64,000 bases of DNA from Pyropia yezoensis. Taxonomy: Eukaryota; Rhodophyta; Bangiophyceae; Bangiales; Bangiaceae. Numbering within the stretch: the stretch's first letter is position 1; each line of letters starts with the position of its first letter. A program made the position numbers and the translations under genes. The stretch covers positions 15,028,792 through 15,092,791 of the forward strand of contig CM020620.1 of NCBI GenBank assembly GCA_009829735.1, in the 5' to 3' direction. Positions 15,870 through 43,818 of this stretch are shown one piece after another. The notes beneath the pieces are model-generated. The model did no database searches. It was not told the DNA's origin and was given only the letters and a program-made list of their open reading frames with translations.

Positions 15870-18240
15870 ATTTGGGGGGGCGACGGAGGTGGATGTATGT
15901 ACTGTACACGTCAATGACGATGTTGAGGTGGGCGCCCAGCTCCTCCGTGCGGCCCACGTAATCGACCCTGCACTCACCCGGCCCGTGACCAACGTGCGGC
16001 CGGGCACCGCCTACCCACCCGTCCTCCCCACCGCTGGCCTGAATGACCCGCGGGTGGGGTATTGGGAGGCGGCCAAGATGGCCGCCCACTTGGTGTGGCT
16101 GGTCGTGTGGGCGTTTTACCTACGGGGGGCGAGGCCGGCCGGGGGGGGGGGGCGCGAGGCCACAAACGGGTGCCCTCGCCGGCGGCGGCCACTGCGGCCA
16201 CCGCCACCGCCATTGCCGCCGCTCTCGTCAGAGTCGTCCACACCATCCACATCGTGCTGATTGGGGGAGCGCCGGCCGCCACCCAAGCTCGTGGCCGCCG
16301 GCACCCGCCACGGGCCCTCGCCGGGGCCCTCCATGGGGGGGGTACTGGCCACGGCGGCGGCGGCGGCAGCGGCGGCCGACGCGGCAGCGGCGGCCGACGC
16401 GGCAACGGCGACGGCAGCGGCGGCGGCCGCCGCCACCGCCTCGACTCCCGGCGGGGGCGGGCAGCCCCTCGGCGGGCTGGGGGGCGGGACGCTAGCGGGC
16501 TGTGCCACGCCCTCCATCTCCCGCGGAGGCGGGGGGAGCTCCACCGACGGCAGGGGCTTGCCCCCCCCCATCCCCGCCGAGCGCCTTACGTGGGACTACC
16601 GCACCGCCCTGACGGTGGCGGCCGCGGTTGGGGCGGCCCACCCGGCGGCGGGGGTGGGGAGGCTGGGCGACGCCCCACCCGTCGAGAAGCACACGCTGGG
16701 GCGGCTGATGGCGCTGGCGGGGGCCACCGTGGCGTGGGGGGGGGGGTGAGTGGGGGGGGGGGGTGGGAGCGAGGCGGGGGGGGATGCCCTCCACCGCCTC
16801 GACGGGCGTAGCGGCGGCGGTGGGTGGTGTGGGGGGCGGCGGCAGCCGCGACGGTGGGGGTGCCGATGGCGGCGGCGGCGGTGGCGGCAGCGGCGGCGAC
16901 GGCGGCGGCAATGGCAGCGGGGGTACCCTCGCCAGCTCTGCCGGGGTCGGCACGCACTTCGCACCCCCCCCCCCCCGCCCCCCCCGGCGGGTCCGCGGCG
17001 GCCGCCGCCGGCGACATGTTCCCCGACGCCGTTGCCCACACCAACCGGCTGGTGGTGCTGAACGTGTGGGCACGCTTCTTTGGGGCCTTCTCTATTGGCT
17101 GCGCAGGTGTGGCGGCGAGGCGGCTGGCCTCCCACCTGCGGGGGCTTATCAAGGCGTGCCCGACGCTGGCGTTGGGGCGGGGGCTCCCGTTTGGCCAGCG
17201 CGGCACGCAGCTGTTCACAGTGACCCAGTCCCTCATGTGGTCTGCTGCGGGGGGGGAGAGCAGGGGTGGAGGTGGGGTAGGGACCACCACGAGGGGCGAT
17301 AATGGTGGTGGTAGTGGTGGTGGTGGCGGTGGTGGTGGCGGTGATGGTGGCGGCGGCTTGTCCTTGGCTGCCAAGGACGCCCCTACCGGCTCGTCGCCGC
17401 ACCGAGAAGGCGGTGGGGGCGGAGGAGCGGCGGGGGACCGCTGGCCGCCACCTCCCCCCTGCGGGCGCGTCGGGAGCCTCCCACTGCAAGACTGCCGAGG
17501 CCACCGCCGGCGAGCTCCTTTGCGCCCTCCGCTATGTGTGTGTGGAGGCCGAGGCGCCCGGCGGGTGGGGGGTAGTGGTTGCCGACGGCCGCCGCGGGAG
17601 CAGCAGCAGCGCCGCAGGTGGGGGATGGGGTGGGGGCAGCGGGTTGGCCGCCGCCAGCCCTGGCGTTGGGTCGGCCGTTCTGTGCATCTTTTATCTCTTC
17701 GACATGTGCGACCTGACGCGGTCCGTGCCCGCCTTCCGCAGCAACAGGCGAGGAGGGGGGGCGCTGGCGTCTGCCACCGGCCGTGGTCGCCAGCACGCGC
17801 CGGCTCTGGGGCAGGCAGGGCGGCCGGGGGGGGGCGGGGGTGGGCACTCTGCCGCTTTGTGCTGCTGCTCAAACCCCCTCCGCGCCCTTCTTGCTGGCTG
17901 GGTGTCACCGCAACCCCCCCCTCCCCCCCCTCCCACGGCAGACTGCTGCGTTTCTGGCCGTGCTCTTGGTGGCTGCTCGTGGGTTGCCACCAGCGGCCGG
18001 CGACAACACCCGGCGCCGGCCGCCCCCTTGCCCGTCGCCGGGTCCCACTGCCGCCTGCTCGGCCACCCCGTCTGACGGCGGCGGCGCCGCCGCCGCCACA
18101 CCCAGCGATGGCCGTGACGACGGCGGTGGCGCTGCTGCCAAGACGGCCGGGGACCCCAACGCCGCTGCCATCGCCGCTGCCGCCGCCCACAGGCAGGTTG
18201 TGGAGCCGCTTGGTCTTTTGAGGACTGGCGGAGTAGGAAG
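15870..18240 (+). CDS. hypothetical membrane-type protein, frame broken at homopolymers (model unresolved)
   Basis: Several plus-strand stretches look coding but lie in different frames. They are about 15880-16140 (VDVCTVHVNDDVEVGAQLL, then hydrophobic MAAHLVWLVVWAFYL), 16340-16746 (LTWDYRTALTVAAAVGAAH), 16824-17340 (NRLVVLNVWARFFGAFSIG) and 17480-17750 (HCKTAEATAGELLCALRYV, VLCIFYLFDMCDLTRS). A possible fifth is 17940-18230 (hydrophobic FLAVLLVAARGL). Changes of frame fall at runs of G or C, for example 16138-16152, or at a GTGAGT donor-like site near 16748. The protein appears Ala/Gly-rich with several hydrophobic segments. I do not recognise the family. The antisense 703-codon ORF is less convincing. 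Confidence 0.4.
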
Positions 18241-18629: not shown

Positions 18630-21600
18630 CTAGGCCGAGGTTTCATCATCCACGTACTCAGCGACAAGGGCTCGGGTGCCGACCAGCATGACAACAAACG
18701 ACCGCACAGGCTGGCCGACCGCCCGGTGGTACGACGCCACTTGCTTCAAGGCACGCTCGAGAAGATCGCGCACCGTCACGCAGACACGGTTGCCGCCGTA
18801 GAGGAAATCACGGTTGAGGCGGAGGTTCAGCTTCTCCTCGTATGACAGGGAGTTGATGTAGCGGTCGACCTTCGCGTCCACAAAGTCGCCACTGCGTTTA
18901 GCCGCCTCGTTCAGCTCGTCGTCATCGTACAAGATGCCGTTGACGCGCACGACCTTGAGCTCGAGCAAAAGCCTGGATGATCCGCTCTTGTTCTGCAGCA
19001 TGAGGTCGTAGAAGCCCGGCCTGCCGCCACCGACGTTGAGAGGGTGCCCACGCCCAGTCGTCAGGACGGCATTCACCGCAGGCTGCGTCCTGAGCCAGCC
19101 TCCAACAGCGGCCTCCATGGCAGAGCTCAAACAGGTCTCGCTGAAGAGGCGGTCCATTGCAAGCGCGCCCGAGTCCCAGCCGTGCAGCACGGCGTCCACC
19201 AGTAGGGTGACGTCTCTGGAGGATGGCGTCTCAATCAGCCGCTCCAAGAAACAAATGTCCGACGCCAACGCCATCTCAAGCCGGGTGAAGTGGTCCAGGC
19301 ATGCGAGCAGGTTGGGAGGGTTGAGCACCGTCAGGGCGCCGTTGTTCTTGAGCTCCCGCACCGATAGGATGCCGTGATAAAACAGGAGCGCCAGCGCCCG
19401 CTCGTACGCAAGCGAGGTAGACGCGTCAGTATAGGCGTCCAGTGCGGGGACACGCACGACGTCCCGCGAAGCGCTCGTGCTCGGGGTCAGCTCCGCCAAT
19501 GTGAAAGGGCTCTCAAGCTGCCGCGTGCGGACAGTGAGCTCCTTGGACGCCTGGAAGGCGTCCTGCAGCGCGACGACGCCAGCCCGGGAAGAAGAGCGAA
19601 GGACCGAGGTGACATTGTGGGACAGGGACACGTTGTCGTCCTTCATGTAGTGTTCAAGCTCGGCATCCATGCTCTCGTGCCGCTCCTCGAGGATGACCGC
19701 CCGGCGTTCTCCGTCGCCCTGCAGCATCTTGAAGAAGTAAATGACGTAGGCCGCCAGGTAGAGTGGCTGAGACTTGGGGTGAAACTTGTAGCCGTTGTAG
19801 AACTTGCGCATCAGCCTCAACGTTGGGATGCGCTCAGCTTCCGTCAGACCGACCTGCGACAGCCCGCGCTCCACATCCGCCTCGGTGAAGCCACAGCATT
19901 CAGCGTACGCCGGCGAATGGGTGAGCGGCCACGCCACGTTCCAGCCAGAGGAGTCGGTGAGGGCAACCGGTGCAATGCCCGTGGTGAAGCTCCGTACTCT
20001 TGTCGAGATCAGCTTGGGCAGACTCTTGAGAGTGAGGTAGAACGCCCGCAAGAAGCCCGCCGGCCTCCGGTCGTGCGCTGGTGCGACTGCATCCTGGTAT
20101 GCGTTCGGGTCCTCGCGCATCAGCTGGTTGAAGGTGCGGTCGTACTCGTCTACCAGCACGAGGAGTTGATGGCCCGCTGCACCGACAGATCTCGTCAACG
20201 CCTTGAGGTTGGCGTCAGCGTTGTCTTCCCGCCATTGCGAGACGTGCACACCATACTTGTCCATGAATCCCAGCATAGCTTCGTTCAGCACGTCCCGAAA
20301 GAGCTTGCACAGGGGAGGAGCGCCAGGACCCGACTGAACTTGGATGGAGAAGTCCAGCGGCAGCACACAGTACGCCCGCGCTCCTGCAGCAGTGCCGCCA
20401 GATGACTGCACGTACGCGTCCGTTGGGGATCCATCCCAGTTGAGGAAGACCTCGTCGAACAGCTCCTGGGTCGTGTGGATGTCGTGGTACACCTGGAGGG
20501 GAGAAGCATGGTCATGCGATAGGTTGAATAAACACAAACAGTACCAGGAGAATGACCGTGGAGGGACCAGTTAGCAAGCAAAGAAAAAACAGAGCAATAT
20601 GCACAGTCCTGCTCAAACGAGAGATGCTGACAGAGTCGACAAACGGTGAGAAGCGACACCCCAAAACTCGCCCCCAGGGACTTGTGTCACACTCATACCT
20701 GCATCTGGGAGGTCAGCAGCGACTTTCCAGACCGGCCCGGCCGCAAGAGCACCAGGTGAGGAGATGCGTCATTCTCCATCATGACAACGTAGCGCGTCTT
20801 GTCTACAAAGAAGCCGTTCTGCCGACGCAGCGTGACAATCTGGTCTTCGCCGTAGCACCATTTGACCACCTCGGCTGGAGATCGGGAGTGTTGACGTTGT
20901 TTCGATGGGCGCTGGCCCGGCGAAAGCTCATTGGGAGAAGGTCCTTCACCGTAAACGGACGACACAAACTCCTGGAGGAGTCGTTCAGCGTCGTCCTCCA
21001 GGTCAATCTTGGTCAGGTGCGGGGAGATGTACTTGACAATCTGAGACAGAGAAAGAGAGACATGGATGCACGTGTACGTGTGGTCGGAAGCATAAGAAGT
21101 CGGGGGCGGCATGAGTACAGCGTCCTTAAGACGGGTGACCGTGACGAGACGAGGTGGGCACCAGAGGACCCGGGTAGCCGCCCACAGACAGAACAAAAAC
21201 CACTGCTATAAACCATGGTTATGAACGTGGCACTCCTCCCCATGTCTGCACATCCGATTCATCCATCACCTGACGTACCTGGAGGAAGGTGCACTCTTCC
21301 ACACCAAGAACAGCGCGTAGGTCCGCATCAGGACGGAACTTGGTCTTGTCATCTTGCAGTCGTAGATGGCGCGCTCTCACGTAGTTGGATATAAACCGCG
21401 TGATGGCGGGGCGCGTGGAGACGTCCTGACCAAGAAAGCGCCGCAGAGCCCCCTTCACGATCACGGGCTTGTGCGGGCCCTTCAGCTTGGCGGGATGGTC
21501 GGGGTACTCCAATGGTGGAAGCGCCTCACGGTCGCCCACGTACAGCCCGCGCACAGGGTCCACGGAAGAGACCGGCACCGGGCCATCCGACCCAGAGGCA

Positions 21601-21797
21601 GACGACAACGGTGCACAGAGCATCGGTGAGGCGGCGCGGCGACACGTGCCGGATGCACCGCCTCCAGACAAGCCGCTAGAGCGACCCAAAAGGGAGACGC
21701 GGCCGGCGGGCATGCCAAGGACCCAGCACTGGGCACCAGACGACCGGCGCGTCACCGCCAAAGAAGCACCGCCCACGCCGACCCCACCGACGCTCAT
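18630..21797 (-). CDS. SWIB-domain / AAA-ATPase-like / PD-(D/E)XK nuclease fusion protein
   Basis: Three exons join in phase 0: 21279-21797 (start uncertain; the ATG at 21797 is chosen), 20699-21040 and 18630-20492. Both introns are GT-AG (donors GTACGT and GTATGA), and the product is about 907 residues. Residues about 105-190 form a SWIB/MDM2-like domain (ALRRFLGQDVSTRPAITRFI ... LRAVLGVEECTF) that continues across the first intron into KYISPHL. Next comes the AAA-ATPase-like module: FVDKTRYVV, Walker A RPGRSGKS and Walker B LLVLVDEYD. The C-terminal part has the nuclease core GFYDLML followed by LLLELKVV, as in DUF1703-type PD-(D/E)XK proteins. SWIB domains act in chromatin and in DNA-associated proteins. 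The ATPase-nuclease pair is usually found alone in bacteria and some eukaryotes. The cellular role is unknown. An in-frame ORF continues upstream to 22076, so the N-terminus could be longer. Confidence 0.8.
20493..20698 (-). other. intron 2 of SWIB fusion gene
   Basis: The donor GTATGA follows the codons for SLLTSQMQ, and the acceptor CCCCTCCAG precedes the codons for VYHDIHTTQ. Joining them restores the AAA-ATPase-like domain in phase 0. Confidence 0.8.
21041..21278 (-). other. intron 1 of SWIB fusion gene
   Basis: The donor GTACGT follows TFLQ, and the pyrimidine-rich acceptor TCTGTCTCAG precedes IVKYISPHL. The splice falls inside the SWIB domain and rebuilds its C-terminal LSPHL-like end, which strongly supports the fusion. 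Confidence 0.8.
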
Positions 21798-22781
21798 GCA
21801 TGGCTGCGGCACAGGAAAAGAAGTAAAGCCCAGGGTCACCAGTGATGACCCACGCAACAACGAGTCAGGCGGGGGAGAAAACCGGCCAGCCATACGGCGA
21901 GCGATCAGCCCAAGCATCACTCGCCACTGGGACCGCGGTGTGCGAAAGGGCGGCGGCCACCACGTCGCCGACGAGGGGCAGTCGCGGCAAGAGAGGGCGG
22001 CGGGTGGGCGGCGGGAAGAGGAGGCGGGGGAGATGAAAAAGTACTGGTGGTGACCAACGTTGGCGACAGTAGCCACAGCAGCGACGGCAGAAGCAGCAGC
22101 AGAAGCAGCGGCCGCAGAAGTGACGGCGGTGGCGACGGCGCCGCGTGGAATGGTGCCGCCCCCGTTTTGGTGGCGGTGGCGGCGACAGCGGCCCCCGACG
22201 GGCGGAAGCTTGTGGTGCTTCTGCTGGTGATGGACCTCGCTGCGGGACTGGGCGTCAACAGGTGGGGGCGCCAGCCACGCGGGGAGGCCCGCGGGGGCGG
22301 CCCCGACGCGGTCAGGCAGGCGGGGGTGGCCGCGGCGAGGTCAGGCAGGCGGGGGCGGCCACCACGCGGGGGGGACGGCGGGGGCAGCCGCCACGCGGGC
22401 AGGGCCGAGTTTGCAGCCACGTACGGAAAAATACGTGAAATTTCCGTCTTGCACGCACAGGGGCCGTGAGGGTCGTTTTCTTGAAAGAGAAATTTCCTTA
22501 CCCTTTCAACTCGAGACCAGCCACGTGTGGCCCGCTGCGCCGTCCGATTGGCTGATGAAGAACACACAGATGCATCTGCCGGCCTGCCGCACCCGTTCCC
22601 CGAGGGTTCTCTTCCGGCGGGGGTTGTCGCCAGGAACGCGGCGCAGCCTCAAGGTGTCGTCAACCTTGACCACGGAACACCCCCCCCTTCACCACGCCGT
22701 GTAGTCCGTCTGATCCCTCTCGCTGCAGGTGTCGTTCTGTACTCCCAACTCCTCCCCTCCACCACCCGTTGATCACTCGCC
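21798..22781. other. divergent intergenic region
   Basis: This region lies between the start of the minus-strand SWIB fusion gene and the plus-strand hAT ORF. It is GC-rich, with repeated GGTCAGGCAGGCGGGGG-type units near 22308-22370. Promoters for both directions should lie here, but I see no distinct elements. Confidence 0.4.
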
Positions 22782-24900
22782 ATGCCTCCCGGTGCGAGCG
22801 TGGTGCCCTCGCCGGAGAGGCGAACGGGCTCATGGCTGTACGTGGCCGTGGACTCCGACTCCGGCCGCATGCACTGCTGGGGGGAGGGGTGCCACTGGAG
22901 CAACTCCTACAACAAGACCAGGGCGAAGGAGCATCTGACGGGCTGCACCGCCGCCAAACGGTCGTTTCCAGAGATGATGGGTGTGATCTCTCCGACTTCG
23001 ACCTCTCCCGGTGCCCCCCCCCCCGCTACGACTGAGCAATTGCACGAGTGGCGATTGCTGTGGGTGGAGGCGATGTGTGAGTCGTGCCTGCCGTTGAGCT
23101 TCTTTGAAACGGCGTCGTGGCGGGCGGCTATTATGGCGGTGAGTTTTGGTCGGTTTGCCGGCCCAGGTGATCGCCGCGTGCTGGCGTCCACGTACGTCCC
23201 ACTTGTGGCAGCCAAGTCGGACAGCGGCGCGGATCCGGGAGGCGGACTCGTCAGCTGTTTCTATGGATGGAGCAACAGTCAACCGTCAAAGTGTGTACAA
23301 CTTTGTAACTTTGGCGCTGCTGTATGCCAACACCCGATTGGGCACCGTTTCCCCGACAAGTGACAACCTATTGAGCGCTCTCAAGAGCTCTTTTAATGAG
23401 CCAATCATGGCAATGGCCCGTGCTGCCGCCAGCACGGGGGGGGCTGGGGGGGCGCCTGTGCCGCGCTGGCGACGGCTCCTTGAGGAACGCGCTCCAGCGG
23501 TCGTGACTGACTCACCAAGCGCCATGGTCCGGATGCGGAGCACCAGTGTGAGTGATGGGACTTTCGTCTTCGGCTACGGCTGCGCCGCCCACGCCGGGAA
23601 TCTCGTCGCTCAAGACGTCGCCAAGCTCCCGCCGTTTTCGCTGGCGCTGCGTAACTCTCTGTGCGCCACCGTATTCTTTTTACGCTGTGGACGCCCTCGA
23701 ACGTTGCATGCCGACACGGTGGCAAGGTCGGTGGAGCCGGGGCGGCGGGCTGTGCGGGGCCTGCAGGCCTACAGCCGGACGCGATGGGTGGGGGAAGCCC
23801 GCACAATTTCAGCCATGGAGGAGAATATCCCCGCGCTACGCCACACCCTTTTTGCCAACACCCTCTCCGCCAACCCGTTCGACGTGCCTGACAGCGTTAC
23901 GGAGGCCCTGGAGGCTCCGAGCCGTGCGGCCATTGGCCAATCGACCTCGTTCCTGAAGACGTTGGCTGCCGTGGTCGCCCTGCTGGAGGCAGATGCAGCG
24001 CCCCTGTCATCTTACGCTGGGCTATTTGCGACCCTCCGCTCATCGCTGGACACGCACTTCATCGAGCTCCCGCCGACCACTCGAGCGGGGCTGCAGCGCA
24101 GCTTGTCGGCGCGTTTTGCCTCATTCTCTGATCCCCTTGTAGCACTGGCCTACTACCTGGACGGATTCTGGAGCCCCGCCCGAGGGCGGCTCGCTGGTCT
24201 TGTGTGGACTGTCCGGGAGGGAGCGGCGGGTCGTACACTGCCAGAGATGCGGGACGCGGCGATTCTTTCCTTGGCAGACGGGGATGCCGCCAGGGCTGCC
24301 CAGCTGCAGGCCGAGCTGAGCGAATTCCTCGCCTTCGCCGCACAGCCGTCGCGGGCGGACAGCTGGCGGCGCCTGCACCCCAGGAGCTGGTGGCGCCTAT
24401 ACGGTGAGCGCTTTGTGCTCTGGCACCCCATTTGCCTACGTCTGTTTTCTTATCCCGCATCAGCGACAGGGGGAGAGCGGGCTTTCAAGCGCCTGCATCA
24501 GGTTCACACCACGAGGCGCAATCGCTTGTCCCCCGGCCTCGTGGACCAGTTGACGCGCATTGCCTTTAACAACTCCCAGTTGCGTCGCCCCGACCCCGTG
24601 ACAGCTTTTTCGCGTTCGGCAACGGAGGTCAAGCTGTGTCGTTTTTTTTTGCCTGTGGATGAGCCTAACGAGGGGGGGGGGGGAGGAGACGTTGTTGAAA
24701 CGGGAGGGGGTGGGGGGGGGATCGTGGTAGCAGGGGGTGCGGGGGGGCTGGGTGTTGACGGTGGGGCCCTTCCTGACGCAGGAGCTCCAGCGCTGGCAGC
24801 AGGTGGTGGTGGGTTGGATGCTTGGGGGGAGGAGGAGGACGTCCCCCCTGACATTGACCCAGGTGATGTGGATGCCATCGTTGCGCAGCTGTTGCTATGA
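22782..24900 (+). pseudogene. hAT-family transposase, one frameshift
   Basis: The ATG at 22782 opens a frame with a BED-like zinc finger (HCWGEGCHW ... RAKEHLTGC) at residues about 30-50, and then LSFFETASWRAAI, typical of hAT proteins before the catalytic core. This frame runs to about 23230. The protein continues in the +1 frame from about 23230: AVSMDGATVNRQSVYNFV resembles the first catalytic-Asp region. It ends at TGA 24898-24900. The C-terminal hAT dimerisation block is clear (SATGGERAFKRLH, then RRNRLSPGLVDQLTRIAFNN). The tail is Gly-rich and acidic. No intron fits the junction, so a one-base indel is likely and the copy is probably dead unless the base is a sequencing error. An AATAAA lies at 24903. 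Terminal inverted repeats were not found. Confidence 0.8.
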
Positions 24901-24974: not shown

Positions 24975-25435
24975 CACACCCCCGGGAGACACCCTCCCCG
25001 CCCGCCCCGCCGCCCCGACCGCCTCTCCGCAGCACCCCAGGGTGGCGCTGGCAGGAGACCGACGCGGGCGCTGGCGGAGGGTAGAGTAGGAAGAAAGGGG
25101 ACGCCAAAAGGTAGGGCGACCCTTCGGCGAGGGCCCCGCGACGGGTGAGAGGCGGGCGTGCGGCGAGATTCAGCGAGTCAGCCGCTGACGCCAACAATAA
25201 AAAAGAGGGGCACACCCTCCCCGCCCGCCCCGCCACCCCCCCCGCCTCTCCACAGCACCCAACGGTGGCGCCGGCAGGAGACCGACGCGGGCGCTGGCGT
25301 AGGGCAGGGTAGGAAGAAAGGGGACGCCAACAGGTAAGGCGACCCACCCGCGAGCGCCCCGCGACGGTTGAGAGGCGGGCGTGCGGCAAGAATCAGCGAG
25401 TCAGCCGCCGACGCCAACAATAAAAGAGGTGGGGG
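24975..25435. repeat. two tandem copies of a 223-bp unit
   Basis: The segment beginning ACCCTCCCCGCCCGCCCCG at 24991 recurs at 25214, and CCAACAATAAAA recurs at 25191 and 25414. Both give a period of 223 bp with only modest divergence. It follows the hAT ORF directly and may be its 3' subterminal region. Confidence 0.8.
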
Positions 25436-28294
25436 GGGCGCGGAGAAACAGGAGGGGATTCCTGGAGGTGCAAGGAACGACACGGGTTTGTCAGCGCCGC
25501 TACACGCCGGGGTCTGCCCGACCGGGCGGGGCACCGCGCGCAACGTGTCGCGAGGGCACACCCCCCCCCCCCCCGCTACCTCACACCCCCTCCACCCCCC
25601 GTAGCACCCCACGGCGGCGCTCGCTGCCGTCGCGGCGGTCGGACCGGCCGTGGCGCGTTGGACAAGCGGGTCATGGCTGTGCCACTGCCGGTCCACTTAC
25701 TCCCAACCTAGCACGAGGCCCGCATCTACTTAATATCCTGCCGTACACCCCCCCCTCCCCGCCGGACTGGCGTCCCCCACAGCGTCCGACAGCATACATG
25801 TCGGTCCCGCGGGGTGCACCCGCGTACAAACTCGATGCCACTCACAGGATAGATGACATTCTGAATGATGGGGAGGTCGGAGTGGAGACTCACCAGACCA
25901 GCGCACAGGAAGTACGGAGCCCGTGCGCGGGGGAAAAGTCGGCAGCAAGGGGGTTCTGCGACACAGCAGAGTCAGGTATGATTGCGACGTTGCTGCAGGG
26001 CGCCGTGGGCTATCGACGAGGGTGTCGACTCGGACTTGCTGCGAGTGGAGAGGCCGGCGGGCTCCTCAACGGTGCGCGTGACCCCACTGCGTCCTACTTG
26101 CGCGACCTCTTCGCAAAGAGTCAAAGAAAGAGTCACCAGGGGGGGGGGGGGGGGGGGGGGGAAAGGGAGCATCAACGCTGCCGACCCGTACACTGTCAAC
26201 GAGCCCCCAACGTCGTGGGCGCGCTGGGAAGGCGGGCGTGGCCGCAACTGGACAGACGCCGCCCACCACTCGCGCTGGTCCAAGATTTTTTTGTGGCCTC
26301 GCAGGCAGAGGACAGCAAAGTGACGAGTTGCGCCGGATGAAAGGAGGGGGTGGAGGAGAGGACACCTCTCGCTCGAGGCGCCTCTCTCCACGCCGGCACG
26401 CCGCGGAACGTACTCGCGCCGGCATCGGATGGCCTGGGAGGACGGGAGGGGAACGGGTGGTGGGAAGTCTATCTCGGCGGCGCAAGTAATTGGGTGGGCG
26501 GGTGCTCGCTGGGGAGGGGGCGGCCGAGGGTCCTGCGACGGGTGTCCTTTTTTGGAAAAAATGATCTGGCGACTCGCAGACTGGTGACGCGGGCCAAGTC
26601 ACGCGATTCCACGAGAATCCGAACGGCGGGCGCCGGCAAAGCCCATGCTGCCGCCCGGCGCATGCGGCGGGGGAGTCGAGGGTGAAGAGCGAGGCGAACC
26701 ATGGCAGCCGCGACGCGTCGGCCTCTCAGGGTGGCACCCCGGTGGCACCCCGTGCAAGGGGGTGCGCGTGTGTGGATGATGCACGTAGGTCCCTCTGCAG
26801 TCTCGTTGCAACAATGGGGCTGCATGCCGCGGCATGCTCCACGAAAATCTCGCACGGCGGCATACGGCGGGTAGCACCTTAACAGCCTTGACGGGTTGGT
26901 CCCCCACCGCCTACACCGCAAGCACAAAAAAAACACCGAAAGTATCAAACTCAACGCGCCCAAATTGCCATGGCAAGCTCTAATCGACCGATAACTCTCA
27001 GGATCTGCCGCGAACTGTCTTCGAAATGTACAGTTCTGCTCAAAGCCAGCTCCCGATTCAACCAGTTCGCCTTTGGTGTACCTCGAATGCACCACCACTC
27101 CATCGTGTGGCCCACACCGCACGACCTCTGGCGATCTCAGAGACACTCCACCAGGCCCATGCACTGGAAAATTTGCAGGTGTCATGTGCATCGATGTCAT
27201 GCCGACAACGTTGAGCCCTCCATTGGCGACCACAAGGCGTCGTGTGCACGTGTCCCAGGAAGGCATCAGATATGCGAGTTATACACAGCCCGCCAAGGCT
27301 GCACACGGTGCATAATCTTCAGATTAACGTTGATTCTGTGAGAGCCGTCCGATAATCCAAGTCATGACTGTGCGGTTGGAGCGATACAAGTGGGCATCGG
27401 AGAGGCCTGTGGGACGGATTTGGGCGTCTCTCAGTGCCTGGCCTCTTGAGTTTCGGTCAAAAGACAGAGTTTTGTCATCGCTTCATTGCTTCTGCGTGGA
27501 GGGCCACGGAGCGCCGACGAGACCGCTTGAAGGCGAAGCTGTCGTATTTTGGGCATGTAGCCCATGTCTCGACCTCAAGTACATTGCGGTCACGAGCACC
27601 CCCGATAGTCCATGTACAGTCAGTATTGGGCATTGTCCCGGGCTGTGGCACGGCTGACAGAACTGTATGACTTGCCGCGGCCTCTGCTACTTTTAGCAAC
27701 GATCGGCGATTCTCGCAGTGTAGATCCATGTGTAAGACCAGGATAGTCGATCGATCGTGACTGAGTATTGTCACGGACGTGACAATATCCAGTCAGACAA
27801 TACCCAATACATACTGTACTATCGCGATAGCAGCACCAATGAGGTGCTCTCACGTGGCACACGTGGCGTTCTAAATGACCATTTCAGACCATTAGTCTCA
27901 CGTTGGTGGGTACGCTCTTAGGCACGCCCCACGACCACGGGTTGCCCAACGATCCGGTGGGCGGAGGTGGGCCGAAATCTCGAGACAAGTGCGCTCCACT
28001 CCGGAGCTGTACCTGGACCTGGATCAAACGAGCCTGGGTAGCCTCGAAGCTACCTACCGGTACAGAAGTACTGCACAGCGTGCGGCGCCGAGGTCGAGTC
28101 ACGATAGCCGCTTACGAATAATCGCCCGTGTTCCTCACCCTCTTTCACCGAGTGCGACGCGCCGCTGCAGCTGGGCGATTGATTTGCGTCCCTCTCTTCA
28201 CCCACCGTACATAGAACCCCCCCCTCGTTGGCCCAAGTCCTCCTTTCCCTCAAGAGAATGATCAACAGCTACCCCCTCCCTACGTACTCCCTTC
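25436..28294. other. gene-free region
   Basis: No ORF here resembles a protein. The first half is GC-rich with a 23-base G run at 26139-26161. From about 26,880 to 28,140 the base composition drops towards normal GC and ORFs are short. That stretch holds a MITE-like inverted repeat at 27603-27829. Confidence 0.45.
27603..27829. repeat. MITE-like inverted repeat with internal palindrome
   Basis: GTACAGT ... TATTGGG ... ATTGTC at 27614-27637 is inverted at 27796-27819 (21 of 24 positions), and a CGATAGT-type extension lies outside both arms. A perfect hairpin with stem TATTGTCACG and a two-base loop lies at 27766-27787. The 0.2-kb length and the lack of coding fit a miniature transposon. Confidence 0.6.
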
Positions 28295-30547
28295 ATGCAA
28301 GGACCTCAGCGAATGAAGACGATGACCACCCCGGGGGGGCCCGCCAAACGCGACCGCCCCCACCAACGGGCGGCGGCGCAGGCCGTGGGGCCCCACCCAC
28401 CGGTGGCGGTGGTGGCAAAGGCGGCGGCTGTGGGCTCCCGCCGCCGCCGCTGGGGGATGCCAGGGGCAGTGGTGGTGGCGGCCGCAGCCGTTGTCGCCGC
28501 CGTTGCAGCCGTCGACCGGCACGTCCTTGTTCTCCCCGCCGGGCGGATGGTGGTGGCTTGGTTGGGATGGGGGGGCGGCGGCGACGACGTCGTGGGGCAC
28601 GCGGCCGCAGCTGCCGGCGCTGCCGGCGGGGGCGCCAAGGCCGCCGCCCTGGCCCCCCCCCCGCCGCTGGGCGCGTCGTTTCGACTTCCCCTGGACGCGA
28701 CGCCCGCGCCAGGCGAGACGGTCAACGTGCCGAGGACACTGGCGGCGCTGGTGCTGCCTCGCCTCCCCCCTCCGCCCTTGCCCCTGCCGCTGCCCAAGAA
28801 GCCGCCCCCGGTGCCCCGCTCGGTCGGGGCGGCCCCGCCACCGTCACCGGCACCGTCGCCGCCGCAGGTGGCCATTGCCCTTTACGTGGCCGGGAGCTTC
28901 CGCAAGTTCGCCGTGACACCCACCCACCTGCGCGTCACCCACTGCCTTGTTGGCGGCACCGCGGTGCCCCTGTCCCATCAGTACGAAGGGGTGTGGGTTT
29001 GTTCCGTTGAGGCGGGAGTGGTGGCGGGGCTGACCCGGGGGGACCCCCTGTCGGTCCTCGTTGATGCGGACGAGCCGCTGGTGAGGGGCAACTGGACGGC
29101 GGTACGGGAAGAGGTGGCCCGGGGGGTGGCCCGGATGGAACGGATTCCGGCTTTGGGGGGGGGCGTCACGGGGGGTTTGGCTGTCACGACCGCCGCCCGT
29201 TGGGGGGAGACGGTCAACGTGGACCCGCCCGCCGCTGCCGCCGCCGCCGCCGCCGCAGCCGCCGCCGCACAAGCAGCCGCCGGGGCCAGTGCCCCCACGG
29301 CGGTGACCCCCGCCGTAACGGCGACGACGGGCGTCTACCGGGTGTGCGCGAAGATGCAGTCCATCTACCCGCCCGCCGTGGCGGTGGCGTGGATGGAGTA
29401 CCACGCCCGCCTGGGCGTTGACCGCCTCTTCCTCTACTCCAACGTGGCCAACAGCACGGCCGTGGCGGCGGCGGTCGCCGCTGCCCCCCGCGGCGTGCGC
29501 GACGCGATTGAGGTGGTCCACTGGCCGTGGCCGCAGGCGGAAGTGGCGGGGACCAACCTGTTTCTCGCCGCCGCCCGTGGGCGCTGCCGGTGGGTGCTCC
29601 TCTTTGATGTCGACGAGTGGCTGCTGGTGCGGGAGTCGGAGCTGCCGCCGCCGTCGCGGCCGGGCCGCCGCTACCGCCACGGCCACGGTAGGCGTGGCGG
29701 TGGTGGTCGTGGTGGTCGTGGTGGTCGTGGTGGTCGTGGCGGTGGTGGCGACGGTGGTGGTGGTGGTGGTGGCCGCGGCAGTGGCGTCGGAGAGGAGGAG
29801 GAGGTGGTGGGGGAGCCGCAGCTGCCACCGATGCTGCGCGCGCTGTCCGCCCTCAACGCGTCGACCGGCGTGTCGGCCTTTACTGTTCCGTCTGTGATGA
29901 TGGGCTCGGGCGGGCGGGTGGCCGACGCCCACCGCCCCTATCCCGACGTGTACACCCACCGGCTGGTCGACGCGGTGGCGCCGTGCAAGGCGCTGGCGCG
30001 CACCACCGACACCTTTCCGCTCACGCACACGCACACGCTGGAAATGCGGGTGACCCGGTCGCGGATGACCATGGTGCCGGGCGCGGTGCTGCGGCTGCCG
30101 CCATCCCCGGCCGGCGCCGTCAGCGCCGACGGCCAGGACAGTGACAGCGACGACGGCGACGACAACGCCGACGACGACGCCGCCGGGGAGCCGCTCGCCC
30201 CCCTGGTCATGGCGCACTATGGCTACCGCAGCTGGGAGGAGGAGGTGGCCAAGCGGTCTGCCGGGCGGGCGGCGGAGAATGTGGACACCTGGTGGTACCC
30301 CAACGTCGCCCGGGCGGGGGTGGCGCTCCCCGCCAACGCGTCGGCCGCCGACCGCCGCGACGCTCACCTGTCGCTGGTCGGCCAGGCGGGGTGGGGGGAA
30401 ATGCGCGACGCGTGGCGCGCCGTGATGCGGCGGCCGTGGCGGCCGCCAGTGGTTGTCGCTGCCGACGCAGACGCCGCCGGGCTGGCCGACTGGGTGGACG
30501 CGCCGAGCCTCATCCCCCGGGCCAACCCCCTCGTGAGGGCGACGTGA
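28295..30547 (+). CDS. family-92-like glycosyltransferase, type II membrane protein
   Basis: A single 750-codon ORF begins at ATG 28295. Residues about 53-72 are a hydrophobic Ala/Val segment, which would make this a Golgi-type signal anchor. A Pro-rich stem follows. The catalytic domain starts near residue 348 with KMQSIYPPAVAVAWMEYHA and LGVDRLFLYSN, a conserved GT92/DUF23-type opening. The metal-binding-like DxD motif is DVDEW at residues 438-442. Later blocks (HRLVDAVAPCKA, VMAHYGYRSW) also fit. The family transfers sugars, such as galactose, onto glycans; the donor and acceptor here cannot be predicted. A Gly/Arg/Asp-rich insertion at about 466-505 is low complexity. The related Glyco_tranf_2_4 family is a possible alternative. 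Confidence 0.8.
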   Translation: MQGPQRMKTMTTPGGPAKRDRPHQRAAAQAVGPHPPVAVVAKAAAVGSRRRRWGMPGAVVVAAAAVVAAVAAVDRHVLVLPAGRMVVAWLGWGGGGDDVVGHAAAAAGAAGGGAKAAALAPPPPLGASFRLPLDATPAPGETVNVPRTLAALVLPRLPPPPLPLPLPKKPPPVPRSVGAAPPPSPAPSPPQVAIALYVAGSFRKFAVTPTHLRVTHCLVGGTAVPLSHQYEGVWVCSVEAGVVAGLTRGDPLSVLVDADEPLVRGNWTAVREEVARGVARMERIPALGGGVTGGLAVTTAARWGETVNVDPPAAAAAAAAAAAAAQAAAGASAPTAVTPAVTATTGVYRVCAKMQSIYPPAVAVAWMEYHARLGVDRLFLYSNVANSTAVAAAVAAAPRGVRDAIEVVHWPWPQAEVAGTNLFLAAARGRCRWVLLFDVDEWLLVRESELPPPSRPGRRYRHGHGRRGGGGRGGRGGRGGRGGGGDGGGGGGGRGSGVGEEEEVVGEPQLPPMLRALSALNASTGVSAFTVPSVMMGSGGRVADAHRPYPDVYTHRLVDAVAPCKALARTTDTFPLTHTHTLEMRVTRSRMTMVPGAVLRLPPSPAGAVSADGQDSDSDDGDDNADDDAAGEPLAPLVMAHYGYRSWEEEVAKRSAGRAAENVDTWWYPNVARAGVALPANASAADRRDAHLSLVGQAGWGEMRDAWRAVMRRPWRPPVVVAADADAAGLADWVDAPSLIPRANPLVRAT

Positions 30548-39952: not shown

Positions 39953-42712
39953 CTACGCCACCACAAACGCAGCAGTGGCCAGCCGCAGACCCCGTAGGTG
40001 GGTGCTGTCTGGTGCCGCGGCGACCGCCGACGCAACGGCGGCGGCAATGCGGGACAGCTCCCCCGCGGCCGCCGCCACCGCTGCCGCGGGAAGCGGCTCG
40101 CGATAAAGCTTCAGGGCCAGGTCCAGCGGCAGCAGCCCGCCGCCGCCGTCTTTGGCAGCGTCGGCGGGGGCGGGGGTGGCGAGGGAGGCGAGCGTCCGCA
40201 CCCACCTCGCCTGCGCCTCGGCGCGGAAGAGGGAGCCGCCCGTGACGGCGGCGGGGGGGCGGAGGTCCTCCCAGGCGTCGCCGAAAAAGGTGCCACTGAT
40301 GGAGCCGAGGAGCGCCGGCACCGACAGGCGGCGGCGGGCATCGCGGCCGCCCGTCGCCGCCGCCGCCGCCACGTTTGCAGACAGCCGTGCCAGTCGCGAC
40401 GGCGTCAGCAGGGTAGACAGCACCTTGTCACGGTCTTCGTGGAGGCGCGCCGCAAGCAACGGGGGCGCGCGGCCGAGGGTGCTCCGGCCATAGAAGGGCA
40501 GCCTGTGCAGCACGTGCGGCGCCACCGTCGCTACCGTCGCCGATGACAAGAGGCCGTCGGTGGGGTGGAGCTGCGACAGCACCCACCGTGCGGCGGCGAT
40601 CTCGGTGGCCGAGCTGATGGGCGTCACGGCGGCGCGGCCGCCGGTGCGGCGGCGGGACGTGACGGTGGCGCCGACCAGCTGCGCCGCTGACCTGAGGCTG
40701 GCCACGCCGGAGAAGAGGAGCGTCTCCACCGCGTCGTACAGGTCGGCGGCAGACGTGAACGGCCGGTCGCGGGCGGTTCGGGCCAGGCGCCGCACCCGCC
40801 GCTGGACAGTGCGCACGTGGTGGCGGTGCCACTCGAGAGGAGTGGCGCTTAGGTCAAACCGCTGCGCCAGTGCGTCCGTCTCCACGTCGTCGTCCACCCC
40901 CACGTCCAGACCCGCGGCGGCCACCGACTCGGCAAACGCCCGCGCGTCACCCTCTGAGCGCCAGTCGGTGTAGCCGTAGCGGATGGCCGCGATATCGTAG
41001 GCACCCACAACGGGGGAGGCAAAGTAACGCTGCGCGTCCCCGTCCTTGGCGCGCGGCAGCGGCGCAGTAGGCACGTAGTCCATCACGCTGGTGCTCAGCC
41101 CATGAATGCCCACGTAAGTGTCGTTCTTCAGATGCGACCATGGAATGCCCGCGCTGCCCCGAAAGTTGTGGCGCAGTCCGACGGTGTGGCCGACCTCATG
41201 GGCCGTCGTATCGGCGAGAACCTGGTACATGAAGTCCTCTTCGGACCCTGGCACGGGTCGGCCGGGCGCGTTGGCCGACCGCGTTCCAAGCAAAGACGCA
41301 GTCACCCCCGCTGCACCTGCCCGCGAGACCGCCAGCCCCGCACGGCCGTCGTCAAACCAAAGTCGGTATTGGGAGGGCGTAGCGCGGAGAAAGTCGTCGT
41401 CCACGATAATGTCGGCGTTGAGGAGCTCCCCCGTCCGTGGGTCGACCTTGGTGTGGCCTACCGCCGCTCCATCGGAGCCCGGCACGAACGAAACCGTGTT
41501 GAATCTCGCGTCATCGGCGGCATAGTCGGCGGGCCAGTCGACGTCGGTGGGCACCGCAGCGCGCAGGACAGGGTGCCGGTAGCCTGCTGCCGCGAATGCC
41601 GGGTTCCACCGCGTGATGCCGTCCACCACGGCCGACCAAAACTCGCGCGGCACGGACGGGTCCACGTAATAGGTGAGGACAGGGTGCTTGGCCAGGTCCC
41701 ACTTGTTGATGTACGTCTCGGTCAAGGGTCGCTTGCCAGCATAGTCGTCCACCCACGAGAGCTTCGTCCCAAAGTAGCCGATGCGGTCGTCCATGGGCCG
41801 CGGCGTCATGAGTTTCCGCGGTAGCCCCAGCGCGGTGACCTTGAGAGCGCCTCCAATGCCATCTGGAGAGACAACGTTTACGGCAAACGTCACCTGCCGC
41901 GGCCGCGCGGCGCCGCCCACAAAAAGGGTAGACCAGTCGCGAAAGAGATGGACGTGAAAGCTGGCAGCGACCCACGGGCCAGCGTCAATGAGGAGCCGCC
42001 CGTCGCCCGTCGGGCGGGCGGGGAAGGACTGGAGAGTGGAGGCGGATACGCCCGCGACCGCCTGGCGGCCCGCGACGCTGGTCGGGTTCACGCTCCGTTG
42101 GCTGATCGGCGGGTGGTACAGCTCGAGCGTCGGAGGGAACACGTTGGGGGCCAGACGAAACGCAAAAACCCCGTCTGGGAAGTTCGACGTCAAGTCCACC
42201 CGACGGAGGAGGTACCACTCGCGGGCGGCCGCGTCGAGGGCGGAAAACTCCGAGGACAGCACAAACGGCGTGTCCAGCTGCGAGACCCCCACCTCGAGCA
42301 GCACCTGCCCAGCCGCGAGGCCGTGCCCCGCGTGGAGCGTAAACAGCCCGACGTGACGGCGGAAGAGGTCGGCGCTCGGCAGCGGGGGGAGCGACGCCGC
42401 GGCGGCCTCACGGAGGTCGGTCACCCACGCCACCGTGCGGGCGTCGGAGGATGCATTGGCGGCACGCCCCGCCGCGGCGGCCGCCGTGCGGACGACGGGC
42501 GAGGGGGGGCTGCCTGCGGCTGCGGGGGGAGCACCGGCGGGCAAAGTGCCGCGCACGGCGGCGGCCGCGGCCACCACCACCACCACCACTACCAGTACCA
42601 CGGTGGCCACTGGAGCAGCGGCGGTCGCGGCGGCGGCGGCTGCAGACGCCCGGCGGTGAAACGGGCGGCCGTCGGCGCGGCGACCGTCGCACACCCAGGC
42701 GGGGACGTCCAT
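39953..42712 (-). CDS. membrane-anchored zinc-dependent metalloprotease
   Basis: The ORF starts at ATG 42712 and encodes 919 residues without introns. Residues about 30-55 are hydrophobic (VATVVLVVVVVVVAAAAAV), a signal anchor. The catalytic site is HEVGHTVGLRH (505-515), the HExxHxxGxxH zinc motif of metzincin-like proteases, and SVMDY (542-546) supplies the Met-turn-like segment. Upstream blocks PMDDRIGYF, LTYYVDPSVPREFW and ITRWNPAFAAAGYR match the bacterial zinc-dependent metalloprotease family that carries DUF5117 and DUF4953. It would cleave proteins outside the cell or in the secretory lumen. The length is close to the bacterial relatives. Because that family is best known from bacteria, an origin by transfer is possible but untested. 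Confidence 0.85.
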   Translation of the reverse strand: MDVPAWVCDGRRADGRPFHRRASAAAAAATAAAPVATVVLVVVVVVVAAAAAVRGTLPAGAPPAAAGSPPSPVVRTAAAAAGRAANASSDARTVAWVTDLREAAAASLPPLPSADLFRRHVGLFTLHAGHGLAAGQVLLEVGVSQLDTPFVLSSEFSALDAAAREWYLLRRVDLTSNFPDGVFAFRLAPNVFPPTLELYHPPISQRSVNPTSVAGRQAVAGVSASTLQSFPARPTGDGRLLIDAGPWVAASFHVHLFRDWSTLFVGGAARPRQVTFAVNVVSPDGIGGALKVTALGLPRKLMTPRPMDDRIGYFGTKLSWVDDYAGKRPLTETYINKWDLAKHPVLTYYVDPSVPREFWSAVVDGITRWNPAFAAAGYRHPVLRAAVPTDVDWPADYAADDARFNTVSFVPGSDGAAVGHTKVDPRTGELLNADIIVDDDFLRATPSQYRLWFDDGRAGLAVSRAGAAGVTASLLGTRSANAPGRPVPGSEEDFMYQVLADTTAHEVGHTVGLRHNFRGSAGIPWSHLKNDTYVGIHGLSTSVMDYVPTAPLPRAKDGDAQRYFASPVVGAYDIAAIRYGYTDWRSEGDARAFAESVAAAGLDVGVDDDVETDALAQRFDLSATPLEWHRHHVRTVQRRVRRLARTARDRPFTSAADLYDAVETLLFSGVASLRSAAQLVGATVTSRRRTGGRAAVTPISSATEIAAARWVLSQLHPTDGLLSSATVATVAPHVLHRLPFYGRSTLGRAPPLLAARLHEDRDKVLSTLLTPSRLARLSANVAAAAATGGRDARRRLSVPALLGSISGTFFGDAWEDLRPPAAVTGGSLFRAEAQARWVRTLASLATPAPADAAKDGGGGLLPLDLALKLYREPLPAAAVAAAAGELSRIAAAVASAVAAAPDSTHLRGLRLATAAFVVA

Positions 42713-43818
42713 GGCCACTCGGGAGGAGCAGCGGGCGGTAGGGGTGACCCGCGGCGAGGGATGCCCTCAATCAATGGGGCAAGCGGTGGCGGGGGGGGGG
42801 GGGGAGGGGCGCACCTGGCGGCCAGGGCACCGGGAATATGAGTGACGGACAGGAGGGAGTGGCACGGCATGCGCCGCCAAGGCGCAGGCGGTCTGGTGGA
42901 GAGGGGAGTGGCCGCACCAGCCGGCTTGCAACCCGCGTGTATAGGCATAGCCGCGCGCTCTTGTGCACGCGGCTGGGTGCACCGCGACCGTCTGCTCGCC
43001 ATGCCTTAGCCCGCCCAGGCGGCCAGGGCCCTCCAGCTATGGTGGCCCGTGGCCGGGCGGCTAGGCGGCCGGGCGGCAGGGAGGGCCGCAGGGAGCGAGG
43101 ACCGCAGGGAGGGCGACAGGGCGAGCAGCAGGGCGAGCAGCAGGGGGGCAGGGCGGGCGGCGTGGTGAGCGGCAGGGATGCAAAGGGAGCCGCAGGGCGG
43201 CAAAGGGAGCGACAGGGAGGCCGGGCGAGCGGCCGGGCGGCCGGACGAGCGGCCGGGCGAGCAGCCAGGCCGGCGTCGCCGCCAAGTCATCGCCCCTGCG
43301 CCAACGCACGGGCGGCCGCGGTGCGGGGGAAGCGGGGGGGGGTGAGAGCAAGCCACCCGCGTGGGCATGCCGCAATCCCCAGGGGGCACGGCGAGGAAGA
43401 GCGGGCGTCCCCCCCATCCACCCAGCGGGACGGGGTGGTCTGCCGCATCGAGGCCGAGCCGGGGGTGCAGACGAAGCGGGCGGGGAACGCGCGGGGCTTA
43501 CAGCCCATAGCAAAGCGCCGCAGGGGGTGGCTGTCAGCCGGCGCGAGCGCGCGCCGGCGGTGGCGGTGCGGGTCGCGACTCGCCCATCGACGGGCCGGGC
43601 TTGGACCGCGGGCGGGAGGCCCGTCGGCCGGGGTGCCAGCCGGCAACAGGGAGCACCGCTGGTCCGATGACACGCTGACGAGGACGGGCGCGCCACACGT
43701 GGGGGGGAAGCAAAAAGGCCTTTTGTTCAGGGCCCGGGGAAGGTGGGGGGGTGAAGAGGCGGGGGAGCAGGTGCCGCCGCCTGCCTCAATGGAAAAGCCC
43801 GCGCGACGCTCCTTGTCA

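What the first reader, a model, noticed from the sequence alone, without database searches (positions are those of the whole stretch)
18630..21797. SWIB domain fused to an AAA-ATPase-like/PD-(D/E)XK nuclease
A SWIB/MDM2 fold split by an intron is joined in frame to a complete ATPase-like module and a nuclease-like core. The parts are known separately: SWIB in chromatin and DNA proteins, and the ATPase-nuclease pair in bacteria and scattered eukaryotes. I know of no described protein with all three, and it suggests an ATP-driven nuclease tethered to chromatin.
Basis: partly seen in the sequence, partly recalled or inferred. Interest (0 to 1): 0.75.

Follow-up and report, generated by a model that had tools for sequence, protein, structure and literature searches.

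The report
SWIB domain joined to ATPase-nuclease
A gene in this eukaryotic (possibly algal) DNA appears to encode one protein in which a chromatin- or nucleoid-type SWIB domain is joined to a bacterial-type ATPase-nuclease pair, a combination not met in the papers and sequence collections searched; what it does has not been tested.

Summary
The minus-strand gene, spliced at two GT-AG introns, encodes 907 aa: a complete SWIB domain (Pfam E=9.1e-13, aa 110-182), an AAA-ATPase_like domain (E=9.3e-25, aa 236-467) and a probable C-terminal PD-(D/E)XK nuclease. The last SWIB helix lies on the same exon as the start of the ATPase, and the spliced SWIB aligns without a gap across the junction to a solved SWIB structure. 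Pfam does not call the nuclease; but E739, D783, E798 and K800, each in 89 of 89 prokaryotic relatives, are kept, the C-terminus outscores 500 of 500 shuffles, weakly, and its model resembles PD-(D/E)XK nucleases, none at E<=0.001. The ATPase-nuclease pair is the known DUF1703 type, linked in print to Crinkler-type proteins and Tribolium Medea1. What is new is the SWIB header; 0 of 89 relatives has an ATG-started extension long enough for one. Walker A has lost an arginine found in 89 of 89 relatives. Most likely: a nucleotide-switched DNA nuclease docked to chromatin or nucleoid by SWIB, of selfish or defensive origin. No transcript data or eukaryotic genome collection was available; the host is unproven.

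The parts
21279..21797 (-). exon 1: N-terminal tail and SWIB model positions 1-69 (start codon uncertain; frame open to 22340, in-frame ATGs at 21917 and 21893)
21279..21470 (-). SWIB domain, exon 1 part (aa 110-173)
   Evidence: Pfam PF02201 E=9.1e-13 on the spliced protein
21041..21278 (-). intron A, GTACGT...TCTCAG, 238 nt, phase 0, splits the SWIB domain
20699..21040 (-). exon 2: last SWIB helix, linker, start of the ATPase with Walker A
21014..21040 (-). SWIB domain, last helix (aa 174-182)
19953..20854 (-). AAA-ATPase_like domain (aa 236-467), interrupted by intron B
   Evidence: PF09820 E=9.3e-25
20720..20743 (-). Walker A loop RPGRSGKS (most relatives RPRRFGKS)
20493..20698 (-). intron B, GTATGA...CTCCAG, 206 nt, phase 0
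18630..20492 (-). exon 3: rest of the ATPase, helical middle, nuclease, stop
20139..20162 (-). Walker B LVLVDEYD
   Evidence: D402 E403 Y404 D405 in 89 of 89 relatives
18633..19247 (-). probable PD-(D/E)XK nuclease domain (aa 703-907); E739, D783, E798-x-K800; motif IV probably Q871/Y875
   Evidence: motif IV is placed elsewhere (near Y832)

Best explanation
This is one gene for a SWIB / ATPase / PD-(D/E)XK nuclease protein. Its ATPase-nuclease half is a divergent eukaryotic relative of the DUF1703 type (AAA-ATPase_like + PDDEXK_9), the kind of module described in print for Medea1 and Crinkler-RHS-type (CR) proteins. Shown by computation: SWIB and ATPase domains, one reading frame across the introns, kept core nuclease residues, predicted folds. 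Inferred: the SWIB domain takes the place of the headers of other CR-type proteins and docks the enzyme on chromatin or on an organelle nucleoid; the NTPase acts as a nucleotide switch of the NB-ARC/ORC kind that holds the nuclease off until it meets a trigger; the nuclease then cuts DNA, for instance that of a mobile element, virus or unmarked allele. It most likely arose when a laterally acquired, selfish or defensive module joined a SWIB exon of the host or of a virus.
For: Pfam SWIB and AAA-ATPase_like above cut-offs. Gapless SWIB alignment across the splice junction. Codon signal in exon 1 and exon 2 frames but in no forward intron frame. 24 of 27 columns that are at least 99% conserved in 89 relatives are kept, among them D402, E403, E739, D783, E798 and K800. 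C-terminus above 500 of 500 shuffles with a profile built without it. Nuclease model: helix-strand-strand-strand-helix-strand-strand with extra low-confidence helices in the insert, pTM 0.75; its first 10 PDB rows are chains of 4ic1, 4cej, 6ppu, 9np6, 2wcw, 2wiw and 7et0, which I recall as PD-(D/E)XK nucleases. Exon-3 model: first 14 PDB rows are plant NLR proteins, then ORC/Cdc6. Printed links of the pair to Medea1, CR proteins and mobile elements.
Against: No transcript or protein data. PDDEXK_9 is not called by Pfam; the C-terminal 393 aa found no plasmid match at E<=1; the profile scores are low (8.4 and 12.6 bits for the C-terminus, 5.0 and 7.9 for the whole protein), and the profile and one alignment put motif IV near Y832 while three put it at Q871/Y875. 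The models were made with alignments to the relatives, which favours their fold. Fold matches are weak (best TM 0.30, three at E<=0.001; none at E<=0.001 for the nuclease). R275 and N533, each in 89 of 89 relatives, are lost; G replaces E769, present in 88 of 89; at the 95% level 38 of 50 columns are kept, where relatives keep 98% on average, 70% at least. Placement among relatives is unresolved on a very long branch. No convincing terminal inverted repeats frame the gene.
Confidence: 0.45

Rival explanations
1. Organelle nucleoid nuclease: the N-terminus is a transit peptide and the SWIB domain docks the enzyme on plastid or mitochondrial DNA, where it trims, degrades or repairs DNA under nucleotide control.
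For: Land-plant SWIB-4 and SWIB-6 are described as nucleoid proteins of plastids and/or mitochondria (passages). aa 1-68 hold no Asp or Glu and 69% S/T/A/G/P/R, against 12% Asp+Glu from aa 69 on.
Against: 20 of 323 ATG-started open stretches in the six frames of the window also lack Asp and Glu over 68 residues, so the signal is weak. The nearest solved SWIB, 1v31, is one I recall as the nuclear BAF60 type, not the organelle type. One review says that the small organelle SWIB genes are not found in algae. The start codon is uncertain.
Confidence: 0.2
2. Selfish toxin: a Medea1-like killer element in which the nuclease damages offspring lacking the element, with SWIB giving access to chromatin.
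For: A DUF1703 homologue is reported as part of Tribolium Medea, and the CR-NTPase8 + CR-REase7 architecture for Medea1; [quoted passage not shown] the nuclease model finds Wolbachia CinB among its PDB rows. Three transposase pieces lie in the window.
Against: Element ends were not found and no second copy lies in the window. An antidote gene was not searched for.
Confidence: 0.12
3. Regulatory or structural protein that has lost or weakened its enzyme activity and uses the folds to bind DNA or nucleotide.
For: Loss of R275 and N533 in the ATPase and of E769 near the nuclease site; very long branch.
Against: Walker A Lys/Ser, Walker B and E739, D783, E798, K800 are kept, which is unexpected if activity were gone.
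Confidence: 0.13
4. Gene-model artefact: a SWIB gene and an ATPase-nuclease gene lie next to each other, the second starting inside intron A.
For: An open frame with an ATG inside intron A runs into exon 2 (20693-21205); 111 GT-AG pairs tried on paper keep the frame, the proposed one included.
Against: The last SWIB helix would be stranded on the second gene; spliced SWIB aligns gaplessly and scores 48.2 against 40.5 bits; the intron has no coding signal in any forward frame.
Confidence: 0.1

Closest known systems
DUF1703 family (Pfam AAA-ATPase_like PF09820 + PDDEXK_9 PF08011)
   Same: Same order of ATPase, helical middle and nuclease; Walker B DEYD; nuclease E, D, ExK (and probably Q) as described in PMC1913061 (passages read).
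   Different: SWIB domain and long N-terminus added; Walker A RPGRSGKS instead of RPRRFGKS; long insert between nuclease motifs III and IV; PDDEXK_9 not called by Pfam.
Tribolium Medea1 and Crinkler-RHS-type (CR) proteins
   Same: NTPase plus restriction-type nuclease in a eukaryote, with a variable N-terminal header for CR proteins (PMC11342252 passages; PMC6387759 section 14; PMC5289972 passages and section 11).
   Different: Headers named there are ubiquitin-like, helical or Myb-type HTH; no SWIB header is mentioned in what I read. No Medea1 or CR sequence was available for alignment.
Plant organelle SWIB proteins (SWIB-4, SWIB-6) and nuclear SWIB proteins
   Same: A SWIB domain of full length.
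   Different: The organelle ones are described as small proteins (passages); no ATPase or nuclease is mentioned as part of them there.
SWIB proteins of algal large DNA viruses
   Same: SWIB domain; SWIB and nucleases occur in the same virus genomes (passages of PMC12085832 and PMC4602308).
   Different: Listed there as separate genes.
Wolbachia CifB/CinB nucleases
   Same: PD-(D/E)XK fold; CinB is among the PDB rows of the nuclease model; cifB is reported with two PD-(D/E)XK domains and an AAA-ATPase-like domain (passages of PMC12445526).
   Different: [quoted passage not shown] No CifB sequence was compared here.
Plant NLR (NB-ARC) and ORC/Cdc6 ATPases
   Same: Overall layout of the modelled ATPase region.
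   Different: About 8-14% identity in those rows, TM 0.30 at best; a nuclease follows here. STAND-type switching is recalled knowledge and inference.

Membership tests
SWIB/MDM2 (PF02201) | profile score above the curated cut-off over the whole domain | tested here: met
   48.2 bits, cut-off 25, positions 1-74 of 74
AAA-ATPase_like (PF09820) | profile score above the curated cut-off | tested here: met
   88 bits, cut-off 26.1
DUF1703 | Walker A RPRRFGKS with conserved arginines | tested here: not met
   RPGRSGKS: R275 replaced by G; R273, R276 and GKS kept
DUF1703 | Walker B DEYD | tested here: met
   D402 E403 Y404 D405
PDDEXK_9 (PF08011) | profile score above the curated cut-off | tested here: not met
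   not listed at E<=1 or E<=10; 81 of the 82 relatives in alignment A2 match it at E<=1
PD-(D/E)XK superfamily | motifs I E, II D, III E-x-K in the right secondary structure | tested here: met
   E739, D783, E798, K800 aligned with 89 of 89 relatives; they fall on the expected helix and strands of the model
PD-(D/E)XK superfamily | motif IV Q in the second core helix | tested here: inconclusive
   Q871 and on helix 157-177 of the model; searches align the region near Y832 instead
PD-(D/E)XK superfamily | metal-dependent nucleic-acid cleavage | not testable with these tools
   needs purified protein
Crinkler-RHS-type (CR) proteins | NTPase plus restriction-type nuclease behind an N-terminal header | tested here: inconclusive
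   domain order fits; no CR profile or sequence was at hand, Zhang et al. 2016 not held
Organelle SWIB proteins | transit peptide | tested here: inconclusive
   acid-free N-terminus, but 20 of 323 chance segments match it
Prokaryotic defence systems (PADLOC) | match to a listed model | tested here: not met
   0 families for exon 3 of the window gene and for 2 relatives, L013 and L001

The most novel reading that the evidence does not exclude
A eukaryotic, chromatin- or nucleoid-docked genome guard: a SWIB reader holding an NLR-like nucleotide switch that unleashes a restriction-type nuclease on foreign or unmarked DNA, that is, a restriction-like defence inside a eukaryotic cell.
Probability: 0.15. 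Interest if true: 0.85.

Novelty: new variant of a known kind. Interest (0 to 1): 0.52.

Why it matters
DUF1703-type ATPase-nucleases are widespread in bacteria and reported in eukaryotes as part of Medea, with a biological role called unclear in PMC6387759. A member that carries a eukaryotic DNA-structure domain gives a direct hint at where such enzymes act in eukaryotes and a testable case of a selfish or defensive bacterial-type nuclease being given a chromatin or nucleoid address.

Tried and rejected
Whole-genome search of the window's own assembly: none held, so paralogues outside the window and other algal copies could not be sought. Viral-contig scans with the whole protein and with SWIB alone: 20 and 6 stretches matched a pattern, none confirmed as a relative; with the alignment, 5 relatives of 64 stretches. 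SWIB in 3 relatives' genomes: 0 of 3, but the control rang in 0 of 14, so it shows nothing. Plasmid tblastn with the C-terminal 393 aa: no match at E<=1. PADLOC (exon 3, 2 relatives) and PHROGs (exon 3, 2 relatives): nothing. NCBIfam with the exons apart: far below cut-offs; exon 1 hit the SWI end of a topoisomerase I/SWI fusion (E 0.0057) and topoisomerase III (0.023), in keeping with SWIB; exon 3 hit citE (0.0089), taken as chance. A weak GSK-3_bind hit (E 0.043, below cut-off) was taken as chance. Rfam (gathering) and tRNA scans of the window: nothing. A tree was built, but the window row sits on an end branch of 3.67 changes per column with no starred group, so no donor lineage is claimed. 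Inverted repeats around the gene: 26 pairs, 25 shown, mostly G/C-rich or homopolymer; one pair (17782-17802 / 23172-23192, 90%) flanks the gene, but such a pair turned up in 5 of 100 Markov-made sequences and one arm lies in the hAT frame, so it is not claimed as element ends. Transit-peptide reading: kept as a rival only, after the control. Sigma-70-type promoter and terminator scan: 1 and 3 found against 0.4 and 2.9 in shuffles, of no use in a eukaryote.

Paper listings: searches (15 of 208 listed; 25 of 46; 1 of 1; 15 of 2261; 20 of 15054; 12 of 26; 8 of 95; 7 of 7; 12 of 52), seen as titles and starts of abstracts. Passages or sections were read of PMC12445526, PMC6387759, PMC1913061, PMC7209962, PMC4154389, PMC11342252, PMC5289972, PMC12085832 and PMC4602308 only; none as a whole.

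Rows dropped: only ORFs of at least 540 aa (89) entered the main alignment; the profile left out 2 of these (L008, L011), leaving 87; structure alignment A2 used the 82 that came from the search for related loci; the nuclease alignment A3 used 51 of those 82.

Full report
What was checked. The three exons join in phase 0 and give 907 codons without a stop; the introns (238 and 206 nt) begin GT, end AG and hold in-frame stops. Pfam finds SWIB at aa 110-182 (E 9.1e-13) and AAA-ATPase_like at aa 236-467 (E 9.3e-25), both above the curated cut-offs.

Is it one protein? The SWIB domain is divided by intron A: exon 1 alone, read on into the intron, reaches model position 69 with 40.5 bits; spliced, it reaches 74 of 74 with 48.2 bits. 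The sequence aligns to the SWIB structure 1v31 (Arabidopsis, recalled) over aa 115-183 without a gap, across the junction. The exon that supplies the last SWIB helix also carries the Walker A loop, so the two domains share an exon. A codon-usage measure trained on exon 3 is positive for both parts of exon 1 and for exon 2 (0.13, 0.20, 0.37) and negative for both introns in all forward frames; the reverse strand of the SWIB part scores 0.19, so there the measure does not tell the strands apart, and the stretch before the proposed start has none (-0.12). On paper 111 GT-AG pairs keep the frame, the proposed one included, so transcript data remain the deciding test.

The ATPase-nuclease half. In an alignment with 89 relatives of at least 540 aa, 24 of the 27 columns that are at least 99% conserved keep their residue in the window protein; at 95% it is 38 of 50, where the relatives themselves keep 98% on average and 70% at the least. 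Kept: G278, K279, Walker B DEYD, nuclease E739, D783, E798, K800. Lost: R275 of Walker A, E493 (now D) and N533, each in 89 of 89 relatives, and E769 (88 of 89). The paper that described the family proposed that Walker A arginines stand in for missing sensor residues (PMC1913061, passages); losing one of them makes normal ATP hydrolysis uncertain.

The nuclease. At E<=1 Pfam lists PDDEXK_9 for 81 of 83 members of alignment A2; the window protein is one of the two without it. A profile built from 87 relatives without the window protein gives its C-terminus 8.4 bits (nuclease alone) and 12.6 bits (with the middle region), above all 500 shuffles in both cases (best shuffles 3.3 and 1.4 bits), but these are low scores, and the whole protein gets 5.0 and 7.9. 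Motif IV is not settled: Q871/Y875, the region of Y832. The AlphaFold2 model of aa 703-907 (mean pLDDT 76, pTM 0.75) has the helix, three strands, helix, two strands order that PMC1913061 describes, plus low-confidence helices in the insert, with E739 at the head of the first helix, D783 before the second strand, E798 and K800 in the third, Q871 in the second core helix. Its first ten Foldseek rows in the PDB belong to 4ic1, 4cej (AddAB), 6ppu and 9np6 (AdnAB), 2wcw and 2wiw (Hjc) and 7et0 (Wolbachia CinB), which I recall as PD-(D/E)XK nucleases, but none reaches E 0.001. The model of exon 3 (pLDDT 76, pTM 0.67) is nearest to plant NLR proteins (best E 5.8e-4, TM 0.30) and then to ORC/Cdc6; the best viral-library match is E 0.01; the relatives' profile has a weak match to the ATPase MalT (E 0.064). 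I read this as a nucleotide switch rather than a motor; that is inference. Both models used alignments to the relatives, which favours their fold.

The header. In 0 of 89 relatives is there an ATG-started extension of 70 aa or more before the ATPase; one of 89 has 70 or more open codons back to the stop. So SWIB looks like an addition. A review of Crinkler-type proteins describes bacterial-type NTPase-nuclease modules that gained various N-terminal headers in eukaryotes (PMC5289972 section 11), and Medea1 of Tribolium is given this architecture (PMC11342252 passages; PMC6387759 section 14). What I read names no SWIB header, and the listings of the paper searches showed none. Algal viruses encode SWIB proteins and nucleases, listed as separate genes (passages). 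These were open-access papers only, and no eukaryotic genomes were searchable.

Where it may act. SWIB proteins are described in nuclear chromatin complexes and in plastid and mitochondrial nucleoids (PMC7209962 and PMC4154389, passages). The acid-free N-terminal 68 residues suggest a transit peptide, but 20 of 323 chance stretches in the same DNA look alike, and the start codon is unsettled.

Surroundings. A hAT transposase frame lies 1.3 kb beyond the 5' end, a DDE_1 and a Plavaka transposase further off. One 21-nt inverted pair flanks the gene, at a level met in 5 of 100 random sequences, and no second copy lies in the window.

Verdict. New variant of a known kind: a DUF1703/Medea-type ATPase-nuclease with a SWIB header.

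Noticed in passing
23143-24900 (+): hAT-type transposase remnant or gene (Dimer_Tnp_hAT, E 5.5e-6) beside the finding; an open frame just upstream at 22773-23363 shows a Cys/His-rich stretch that looks like a zinc finger by eye.
   Followed up: partly
52450-54351 (+): DDE_1 superfamily transposase (E 8.3e-27).
   Followed up: no
57532-58308 (-): Plavaka-type transposase piece (E 7.5e-9).
   Followed up: no
39953-42766 (-): 937-codon open frame with a met-zincin protease domain (DUF4953, E 1.1e-39); 7 bacterial plasmid records match, the 5 listed at 26-29% identity. Possibly a laterally acquired gene.
   Followed up: partly
28262-30547 (+): Open frame with a glycosyltransferase family 2-like domain (E 3.7e-7).
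   Followed up: no
24984-25429: Two head-to-tail copies of a 223-nt unit, 89% alike, just after the hAT frame.
   Followed up: no
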